Assembly (NCBI GenBank): GCA_902984215.1
Contig: CADWAF010003261.1
Span: 1-64,000, forward strand
DNA from: Willaertia magna
Lineage: Eukaryota > Heterolobosea > Eutetramitea > Acrasida > Naegleriidae
Length of the DNA stretch: 64,000 bases
Direction of reading: 5' to 3'
The position numbers were made by a program, and so were the translations under genes. The notes below the pieces were generated by a model. That model searched no databases, had not been told where the DNA came from, and saw only the letters and a list, made by a program, of their open reading frames with translations. Shown here piece after piece: positions 1 to 5,702 of this stretch (position 1 is the stretch's first letter; every line of letters begins with the position of its first letter).

Positions 1-214
1 CACAACACTCTTTCTTTGTACCAATCCATTCATAATCAGTACATTTACCTTTAACTGATTTGTATTTGTGACACTTTTCATAACAATACTTTTCAGGTTG
101 CTTTCCATAGGTATCTGTCTTTTTGTCAGCTGGTTTCTTTGCATCACCAGTTGCCAATGCAAAGCTTAATATTACACTTAATAATACAGTTAAAAGTAAT
201 ACTTTTGTACGCAT
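1..214 (-). CDS. Secreted small Cys-rich peptide precursor, 3' end beyond window
   Basis: Reading leftward from an ATG at 214-212 gives 71 codons without a stop before the window edge. Residues 1-21 form a typical signal peptide (MRTK, then a Leu/Val/Ile core ending in FALA). A short Lys/Asp-rich spacer follows. The next segment holds five cysteines before the edge, spaced C-x3-C-x9-C-x11-CC, with Tyr, Lys and Trp between them. This looks like a small disulfide-stabilised secreted peptide (defensin-like or another host-defence or effector peptide), but the cysteine pattern is incomplete and I cannot name the family. The ATG follows an A/T-rich leader with no other start nearby. Function is unknown. 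A second secreted peptide precursor lies 4.4 kb away (4653-5702). Confidence 0.65.
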   Translation of the reverse strand, partial: MRTKVLLLTVLLSVILSFALATGDAKKPADKKTDTYGKQPEKYCYEKCHKYKSVKGKCTDYEWIGTKKECC

Positions 215-4652: not shown

Positions 4653-5702
4653 TTAACATCTTCTAAGACATCTTGCATATGGACCAGCATTTCCCTTGAA
4701 AAGTTCATTACAGAGAGCAACACAATTGTCATCTGCAAGAGCATATCTTAATAAAGATAAATCAGATTGTTCAACTGCAGCATCTTTCCACCATCCTTGT
4801 TGTTTACCAAACTTATATCCCTTGATACCTAACTTGATACCACTTAAGATTGCACCAATTGGAATATCACTTTCTTCACGTGCAGCATCTTTCCACCATC
4901 CTTGACTCTTGCCAAATTGATATCCTTTAATACCAAGTTTAATTCCACTTAAGATTGCACCAATTGGAATATCGCTTTCTTCTTGAGCTGCATCTTTCCA
5001 CCATCCTTGTTGTTTTCCAAACTTGTATCCTTTAATGCCTAATTTAACTGCACCAATAATTGCACCAATTGGAATATCACTCTCTTCTTCTACAGAGTCT
5101 TTCCACCAACCTTGTTGTTTACCGAATTGATAACCTTTAATACCTAACTTGATACCAGATAAAATTGCACCAATAGGAATATCACTTTCTTCTTCGACTG
5201 CATCTTTCCACCATCCCTTACTTTTACCAAACTTGTATCCTTTAATTCCAAGTTTGACACCAGCGATGATTGCACCAATTGGGAGGTCACTTTGTTCTTC
5301 AGCTGCGTCTTTCCACCATCCTTGTTGTTTACCAAATTGATATCCTTTAATTCCAAGTTTAATTCCACTTAAGATTGCACCAATTGGGATGTCACTCTCT
5401 TCTTCAACAGAGTCTTTCCACCATCCCTTGCTCTTACCGAATTTATAGCCTTTAATACCTAACTTAACGCCAGCAATAATTGCACCTAATGGGAAGTCAG
5501 CATATGGTCTAGGGTCAAATGGATCATTTGGATTTCTTCTTCTAATTGGGATTTTAATAGGTCTTCCACCAAATGGATCTACGGTTCTGTATTCATCTCT
5601 TGGTTTTCTTGGTGGACCACCGAATGGGTCTTCAACTCTTGCTCTACCAAAGACTGTTACTGCAAGGATTGCTAATAAAAGAGCAAAAAGGATAACTTTC
5701 AT
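4653..5702 (-). CDS. Secreted repeat polyprotein: seven Gly/Trp-rich peptides plus Cys hairpin tail
   Basis: 349 residues from the ATG at 5702, which follows an A-rich leader. An in-frame ATG 18 codons upstream would bury the signal peptide, so I reject it. Residues 1-19 are a signal peptide. Residues 20-69 are Pro/Arg-rich with two DPFGG motifs and an Arg-Arg-Arg. Residues 70-314 are seven exact-length 35-residue repeats. Each has a cationic, Gly-spaced hydrophobic core (xPxGAIxxGxKLGxKGYxFG, a linker, then GWWKD) and an acidic Glu/Ser/Asp linker. The tail (315-349) carries CALC-type cysteines spaced C-x3-C-x13-C-x3-C, the alpha-hairpinin spacing. The layout resembles multi-peptide antimicrobial precursors, but that function is inferred. 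Repeats 1-4 strictly alternate between two variants. I do not recognise the family. There is no intron. Confidence 0.8.
   Translation of the reverse strand: MKVILFALLLAILAVTVFGRARVEDPFGGPPRKPRDEYRTVDPFGGRPIKIPIRRRNPNDPFDPRPYADFPLGAIIAGVKLGIKGYKFGKSKGWWKDSVEEESDIPIGAILSGIKLGIKGYQFGKQQGWWKDAAEEQSDLPIGAIIAGVKLGIKGYKFGKSKGWWKDAVEEESDIPIGAILSGIKLGIKGYQFGKQQGWWKDSVEEESDIPIGAIIGAVKLGIKGYKFGKQQGWWKDAAQEESDIPIGAILSGIKLGIKGYQFGKSQGWWKDAAREESDIPIGAILSGIKLGIKGYKFGKQQGWWKDAAVEQSDLSLLRYALADDNCVALCNELFKGNAGPYARCLRRC
4761..5495 (-). repeat. Seven 105-bp in-frame tandem repeats (two alternating types)
   Basis: Seven units of exactly 105 bp (735 bp) encode the repeats of the secreted polyprotein. No unit has gained or lost a codon. 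Units 1 and 3 share GAIIAGVKLG with GYKFGKSKG. Units 2 and 4 share GAILSGIKLG with GYQFGKQQG. Unit 5 is a variant of the first type (GAIIGAVKLG). Units 6 and 7 are of the second type with exchanged linkers. The alternation implies growth by duplication of a 210-bp double unit, followed by mixing in units 5-7. Confidence 0.9.

What the first reader, a model, noticed from the sequence alone, without database searches (positions are those of the whole stretch)
4653..5702. Secreted polyprotein of seven Gly-zipper/Trp peptides closed by an alpha-hairpinin-like tail
Seen: signal peptide, seven exact 35-residue repeats each with a cationic Gly-spaced core and an acidic spacer, then a C-x3-C-x13-C-x3-C tail. 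Known: alpha-hairpinin plant peptides use C-x3-C-xn-C-x3-C; several animal and plant defence peptides are released from repeat precursors with acidic spacers; GxxxG cores occur in pore-forming two-peptide bacteriocins. Inferred: this gene makes a set of membrane-active peptides, possibly with two cooperating types, plus a hairpin peptide. I know of no described heterolobosean family like it.
Basis: partly seen in the sequence, partly recalled or inferred. Interest (0 to 1): 0.88.

Follow-up and report, generated by a model that had tools for sequence, protein, structure and literature searches.

The report
Amoeba's multi-peptide antimicrobial precursor family
The gene belongs to a large, apparently undescribed family of secreted amoeba proteins that look like strings of small antimicrobial peptides joined by acidic cut sites, some of them ending in an enzyme that digests microbial cell walls.

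Summary
The ORF is real (349 aa, minus strand): leader, Pro/Arg block, seven 35-aa repeats, C-x3-C-x13-C-x3-C tail. The repeats match in length, not sequence; pooled dN/dS is 0.10. The genome is Willaertia magna. The gene has kin: 18 ORF pieces at 17 loci share its plan, strings of short, mostly cationic modules opened by [Ala/Ser]-Asp after acidic stretches (128 [AS]D against 29.9 +/- 5.1 in shuffles). Paralog C164 carries both the window's repeat type and the common type. C164 and C782 share the tail's cysteine spacing. A Naegleria lovaniensis protein has the plan too. Some members end, after the same junction, in an NlpC/P60 peptidoglycan-hydrolase domain or a GH45 cellulase. Best reading: precursors of membrane-active peptides plus wall-degrading enzymes for killing microbes. 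Release and activity are inferred, not shown. Against it: the window's own repeat is no more amphipathic than shuffles, it is not detectably homologous to the other module types, and no structure could be predicted. The alpha-hairpinin label rests on cysteine spacing alone.

The parts
4653..5702 (-). whole gene, 349 aa plus stop, single open frame
5646..5702 (-). signal-peptide-like N-terminus, residues 1-19 (cleavage site approximate)
   Evidence: read by eye; a similar hydrophobic leader is seen in 16 of 18 ORF pieces (C358 starts at a contig edge, C359b lies in another frame from its leader)
5502..5645 (-). Pro/Arg block, residues 20-67, holding DPFGG twice and NPNDPFDPRPY
   Evidence: NPNDPFDPRP recurs in P0015 and, by eye, is the strongest part of a 61-bit two-sequence match
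5397..5501 (-). repeat 1 (form IIAGV...KSK)
5292..5396 (-). repeat 2 (form ILSGI...KQQ)
5187..5291 (-). repeat 3 (form IIAGV...KSK)
5082..5186 (-). repeat 4 (form ILSGI...KQQ)
4977..5081 (-). repeat 5 (intermediate form IIGAV...KQQ)
4872..4976 (-). repeat 6 (form ILSGI...KSQ)
4767..4871 (-). repeat 7 (form ILSGI...KQQ)
4656..4766 (-). C-terminal tail, residues 313-349, C-x3-C-x13-C-x3-C; begins with SD and holds a second AD before the first Cys
   Evidence: same spacing in C164 and C782

Best explanation
The gene is one of a large gene family of Willaertia magna that makes secreted precursors of microbe-killing peptides. The chain enters the secretory route (phagosome or medium). A protease cuts near the [Ala/Ser]-Asp that marks each unit, after an acidic stretch that probably keeps the cationic peptide quiet until release. 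This frees seven Gly/Lys/Trp peptides, a Pro/Arg-rich N-terminal peptide and a disulfide-bonded four-cysteine tail peptide. The peptides would act on microbial membranes. Paralogs release other cationic helical peptides, Arg-rich segments and, after the same junction, an NlpC/P60 peptidoglycan hydrolase or a GH45 cellulase, so membrane and wall are attacked together. Shown: the architecture, the family, the shared junction, purifying selection on the repeats, the enzyme fusions. Inferred: secretion, the cutting and its exact bond, the disulfides, the killing, the target.
For: Seven 35-aa units kept at dN/dS 0.10 with dS 1.36. Paralog C164 holds two units of the window's type (found with a pair of window repeats at 44.5 and 38.1 bits, E 3e-10 and 3e-8), modules of the common type, and the same cysteine-spaced tail; C782 has the tail too. 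18 ORF pieces at 17 loci share the plan, with modules in different orders between [AS]D junctions. [AS]D: 128 of 276 D in the 18 pieces against 29.9 +/- 5.1 (maximum 48) in 2000 shuffles; 61 of 137 D in six proteins from other or unnamed sources against 19.1 +/- 3.9 (maximum 35); window protein alone 9 of 22 against 2.9 +/- 1.5 (maximum 9). The 8 residues ending at the junction average charge -2.5, the next 24 average +4.1 (n=174). Sample sequences of module types A, B and C have helical moments 0.59-0.71, reached by at most 0.6% of 2000 shuffles. NlpC/P60 at the C-terminus of C358 and P0012 (probably one gene in two assemblies) and of P0017 (E about 1e-13), and GH45 in P0016 (E 9e-55), each domain following an [AS]D junction. 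Free-standing SH3-NlpC enzyme C754 also has EEESD before its domains. Pfam's frog-peptide family PF08110 scores 32.9 over its cut-off 22.7 in P0004/C342. W. magna lysate is reported directly fungicidal to two oomycetes (abstract passages). T. vaginalis NlpC/P60 enzymes degrade peptidoglycan (abstract).
Against: No peptide has been seen by mass spectrometry here and none was tested. The window's own repeat (type E) has helical moment only 0.33-0.37 in three samples, reached by 21-42% of shuffles; type D (0.31, 25%) and the tail (0.47, 11.5%) do not beat shuffles either. As whole 35-aa units the window repeats are nearly neutral (net -1 to +2); only the cores are cationic (+4 to +6). Type E is not detectably homologous to module types A-D (hhalign probability under 4%), so its function is carried over from the family by architecture. 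Linkers are as conserved as cores (dN/dS 0.110 against 0.106), which a throw-away spacer need not be. The counted ORFs are related and were picked partly by similarity, so the [AS]D counts are not independent. PF08110 is met in 1 of 10 proteins and 1 of 9 (C342 and P0004, the same protein). The Gly face of type E stands out only if the first Gly is left out (8.3% of shuffles with it, 0.1% without).
Confidence: 0.7

Rival explanations
1. The chain stays whole: a secreted multi-helix protein that binds or lyses microbes through many weak, repeated contacts, with [AS]D-acidic segments as flexible hinges or helix caps.
For: Linkers are as conserved as cores. Asp and Ser are common helix N-caps (recalled), which could by itself favour [AS]D at module starts.
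Against: Modules of unlike types, sizes and composition (amphipathic, Arg-rich, His-rich, cysteine tail, enzyme) are mixed in different orders, odd for one folded body. The same motif precedes separate enzyme domains.
Confidence: 0.14
2. Signalling or pheromone peptides released from a repeat precursor.
For: Repeat polyproteins are a common source of such peptides (PMC5850478 passages).
Against: Many divergent cationic modules, Arg-rich blocks and cell-wall hydrolases in the same family.
Confidence: 0.06
3. Structural or cyst-wall repeat protein.
For: Tandem repeats with Gly and Trp; secreted-looking leader.
Against: Enzyme fusions, cationic amphipathic modules in paralogs, varied module order; no match to a structural family in Pfam or PDB.
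Confidence: 0.05

Closest known systems
Naegleriapores (Naegleria fowleri saposin-like pore-formers from one precursor; Herbst et al. 2004, seen only as a citation and in passages of PMC5850478 and PMC7561387)
   Same: Heterolobosean; several antimicrobial peptides cited as released from one precursor.
   Different: Saposin-like proteins have a six-cysteine pattern (passage); here the repeats are short, without cysteine, and no saposin match appears in Pfam for the window protein.
Plant alpha-hairpinin precursors (MiAMP2, Tk-AMP-X; PMC7191063 passages, PMC11591084 Table 1 passage)
   Same: Secreted modular precursor; the tail fits the 4C rule CX3CX4-20CX3C.
   Different: Plant precursors repeat the hairpin 2-12 times (passage); here the four-cysteine unit occurs once at the end and the repeats have no cysteine. 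No sequence match in PDB at E up to 10.
Magainin and apidaecin multi-peptide precursors (named in a PMC5850478 passage)
   Same: Several peptides from one precursor.
   Different: Other spacer motif here ([AS]D; that the known ones use other processing sites and carry no enzyme at the end is recalled). Sequences not compared directly.
Trichomonas vaginalis NlpC/P60 peptidoglycan hydrolases (PMC6299479 abstract)
   Same: A protist using NlpC/P60 enzymes against bacteria; weak sequence match of P0012 to entries 8ev4 and 6biq, named clan CA C40 there (that these are the Trichomonas enzymes is recalled).
   Different: Here the domain is fused to a string of cationic peptides.

Membership tests
[AS]D-junction peptide-string family of Heterolobosea (defined here) | secreted leader, multiple short modules, [AS]D junction after an acidic stretch | tested here: met
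   (window protein 9 [AS]D against 2.9 +/- 1.5; the largest of 2000 shuffles also reached 9)
[AS]D-junction peptide-string family of Heterolobosea (defined here) | sequence link to other members | tested here: met
   own-genome search finds C164 at E 1.3e-18; C164's annotated form P0002 1e-20 and P0015 1e-15 in two-sequence BLASTP, lenient for repeats. Against: the database search with the window protein found nothing at E up to 1, and no link to the other 15 loci is seen without C164.
alpha-hairpinins | CX3C-X4-20-CX3C motif | tested here: met
alpha-hairpinins | two antiparallel helices held by two disulfides | not testable with these tools
   structure prediction not accepted
alpha-hairpinins | sequence similarity to a solved member | tested here: not met
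   no hit at E up to 10; members have low identity to each other (passage), so this is weak evidence
naegleriapores / saposin-like proteins | saposin domain with six cysteines | tested here: not met
   no saposin family among Pfam matches up to E 1; only four cysteines, all in the tail
class IIb two-peptide bacteriocins | match to a bacteriocin model; paired genes with immunity and transport genes (recalled definition) | tested here: not met
   no match over cut-off in NCBIfam; the gene lies in a eukaryotic genome next to F-box-like, U-box/ankyrin and RCC1-like genes

The most novel reading that the evidence does not exclude
Willaertia, with relatives in Naegleria, makes combined-payload precursors: one secreted chain delivers many different membrane-active peptides and a wall-digesting enzyme (peptidoglycan or cellulose), all freed by one [AS]D-directed protease. 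This family would be a main molecular basis of the amoeba's microbicidal power, including the reported direct activity of its lysate on oomycetes, whose walls contain cellulose (recalled).
Probability: 0.35. Interest if true: 0.9.

Novelty: new variant of a known kind. Interest (0 to 1): 0.78.

Why it matters
W. magna lysate is approved in the United States against fungal plant diseases (abstract of PMC11197080 in the listing), and the passages shown of two lysate papers (12 of 37 places; 12 of 13) named no amoeba peptide as its active principle. A family of 17 precursor loci with 107 module pieces of 24 aa or more, its own cut motif and enzyme payloads, gives a direct molecular candidate and a new source of antimicrobial sequences. 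It also makes a testable system for how phagotrophic protists kill prey, and for how a protist couples wall hydrolases to membrane-active peptides.

Tried and rejected
Database search with the window protein: 811 candidates, none at E up to 1, although other family members of W. magna are annotated there; why the window gene is missing is not known. The searches scored only the 8000 candidates sharing most words, so their hit lists are lower bounds. PDB with the whole protein: only a chance DNA-ligase match, E 0.45. Pfam on the window protein: GP46 at E 0.77, rejected. NCBIfam: matches up to E 1 all below their cut-offs (the nearest is a lasso-peptide model in C760, 22.6 against 33 bits). Relatives in prokaryote genomes and viral contigs: 343 and 42 pattern matches, none confirmed. 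Pfam RBD_LARS1 in P0018 is over its cut-off (36.4 against 27 bits, no single stretch passing) and RPN7 in C50 is below it (22.7 against 29.6); I set both aside as repeat-composition matches, by judgement. Structure prediction of three repeats and of repeat plus tail: not accepted. Legumain as the protease: one locus matches (C116), which shows only that a candidate is present; no other protease family was searched. Shared upstream word: ATTATAAT in 9 of 16 upstream regions against at most 7 for any 8-mer in 200 shuffles; no control on other genes, so not used. The type E profile was built with the two C164 units inside, so its 67.0- and 68.5-bit scores for them are by construction and are not used as evidence. 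Rows dropped: C813, C357, C295 and C855, matched at E 3.6e-6, 4.6e-5, 0.059 and 0.12, were fetched and looked at and left out of the family count; C813, C357 (near a contig end) and C855 may be fragments or decayed members. C754 and C633 have NlpC but no peptide string. Module counts by type rest on simple text rules (107 pieces of 24 aa or more in 18 ORF pieces, 25 of them unclassified; that script put 8 pieces in type E, although 9 units are seen).

Full report
What is there. The ORF at 4653-5702 runs on the minus strand, ATG to TAA, 349 aa. It has a hydrophobic leader, a Pro/Arg block (residues 20-67), seven 35-aa units (68-312) and a 37-aa tail with C-x3-C-x13-C-x3-C. The units are equal in length but all seven differ in sequence. 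Over the 21 pairs, pooled synonymous divergence is high (dS 1.36) and amino-acid divergence low (dN 0.136, ratio 0.10), with cores (0.106) and linkers (0.110) alike. So the array is not a fresh duplication; the peptide sequence has been held by selection.

Where it is. The window lies in contig C540 of a 19.24-Mb, 894-contig assembly. Four of its family ORFs are 100% identical over their length to proteins named Willaertia magna ABK040 (P0004, P0005, P0011, P0013), so the organism is W. magna or a very near strain. Low G+C in the window (0.17-0.31 per 2 kb) fits the published 24.8% (PMC6892926 table passage). Nearby genes are F-box/SPRY-like, U-box/ankyrin and RCC1-like and tell nothing about function.

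A family, not a singleton. Searching the own genome with the window protein gave one paralog, C164 (E 1.3e-18). Its 497-aa open frame has a leader, two units of the window's type, other amphipathic-looking units and a tail with the same 3-13-3 cysteine spacing. Searching with C164 and then with C760 led to 18 ORF pieces at 17 loci that I read as family members; four weaker loci were looked at and left out. C782 carries a third tail with the same spacing. A profile search of the large protein collection (8000 candidates scored) gave 18 proteins at E up to 0.01: 12 from W. magna ABK040, one from Naegleria lovaniensis (P0010, E 7.8e-78) and five from unnamed sources. One of these, P0015, shares the window's N-terminal block, with three DPFDPRP copies in P0015 (61 bits in a two-sequence comparison). 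A profile of the window's unit type finds it only in the window gene and in C164/P0002, which were in the profile, and hhalign does not join it to types A-D (probabilities under 4%). Membership of the window gene therefore rests on the C164 hybrid, the tail, the N-terminal block and the junction motif. Prokaryote genomes and viral contigs gave no relative.

The junction. Nearly every unit opens with Ala-Asp or Ser-Asp after an acidic stretch. In 18 ORF pieces 128 of 276 Asp follow Ala or Ser, against 29.9 +/- 5.1 (maximum 48) in 2000 shuffles; in six proteins from other or unnamed sources 61 of 137 against 19.1 +/- 3.9 (maximum 35); in the window protein 9 of 22 against 2.9 +/- 1.5 (maximum 9). 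Over 188 junctions the residue before is Glu 75, Gln 50, Leu 34. The eight residues ending at the junction average charge -2.5, the next 24 average +4.1 (n=174). The ORFs are related, so these counts are not independent. Among 59 window ORFs of 60 aa or more the gene has the highest [AS]D density. The motif is read as a processing mark; which bond is cut, and by what, is not known. One legumain-like locus is present.

Payloads. One sample core each of the common module types A, B and C is cationic (+6 to +8) and strongly amphipathic: moments 0.71, 0.70 and 0.59, reached by at most 0.6% of 2000 shuffles. The window's type E is not: 0.33-0.37 in three samples, reached by 21-42%. Nor are type D (0.31, 25%) and the tail (0.47, 11.5%). 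The Gly residues of type E lie on one face clearly only if the first Gly is left out (resultant 0.88, 0.1% of shuffles; with it 0.58, 8.3%). Other segments are Arg-rich or His-rich. Pfam's ocellatin (frog peptide) family passes its cut-off in one family protein, seen as P0004 and as C342 (32.9 against 22.7 bits). The C-terminus of C358 and P0012 (probably one gene in two assemblies) and of P0017 is NlpC/P60 (E about 1e-13), and of P0016 is GH45 (E 9e-55); each follows an [AS]D junction, in P0016 with a Cys-rich stretch between. In the best alignments the Cys and the first His of the NlpC active site are kept, while the third position reads Ser; which residues are catalytic is recalled. The GH45 part matches solved endoglucanases (best E 1e-62). 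C762 has the same NlpC fusion interrupted by an in-frame stop; the annotated W. magna protein P0013 ends at that place too. The GH45 part at C95 also shows a stop in this assembly's frame, while P0016 is annotated whole. C754 is a secreted-looking SH3-NlpC enzyme without peptides, but with EEESD before its domains.

How it most likely works. The shared plan, mixed cationic modules, acidic junctions and wall hydrolases point to secreted antimicrobial precursors cut at [AS]D. For the window gene itself I infer release of seven type E peptides, an N-terminal Pro/Arg peptide and a four-cysteine tail peptide. The weak amphipathicity of type E is a real gap: it may insert as a Gly-zipper helix, act only with partners, or do something else.

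Literature. Library searches for Naegleria, Willaertia or heterolobosean with antimicrobial peptide and precursor, repeats or polyprotein and for amoeba repeat propeptides listed no paper whose title or abstract start describes this family; the library lacks most subscription journals. Passages of the W. magna genome and omics papers, the Naegleria pangenome paper and the Naegleria single-cell paper do not name it; only passages were seen and their supplements were not read. The lysate's direct fungicidal activity is stated in the abstracts of PMC7463879 and PMC9607421, beside an effect on plant defences; linking it to this family is my inference.

Verdict. It is larger than stated: a multigene, multi-payload precursor family. 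The alpha-hairpinin label is supported by spacing only.

Noticed in passing
L065 (C762), minus strand (open frame 1161-2213 in reverse-complement coordinates): Peptide string with an NlpC/P60 domain interrupted by an in-frame stop; the W. magna ABK040 protein P0013 ends at the same place.
   Followed up: partly
L030 (C266) and L068 (C865): Very basic pieces of 159 and 151 aa (net charge +69 and +63), rich in Arg and with His runs, between ordinary peptide modules: possible nucleic-acid- or membrane-binding payloads.
   Followed up: no
P0017 (ABK040_002371): Extra cysteine-rich segment between leader and peptide module, ahead of the NlpC domain.
   Followed up: no
P0018 and P0019 (unnamed sources): Looser repeat strings with SD/AD junctions, suggesting the plan may be wider than Willaertia and Naegleria; P0019 carries a source name, CtsR regulator, that does not fit its sequence.
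   Followed up: no
upstream of 16 family ORFs: ATTATAAT occurs in 9 of 16 upstream regions and most end in A-rich runs before the ATG; no control with other W. magna genes.
   Followed up: partly
window 2-214, minus strand: Short ORF with a signal-peptide-like start (MRTKVLLLTVLLSVILSFALATGDAKK), running to the window edge.
   Followed up: no
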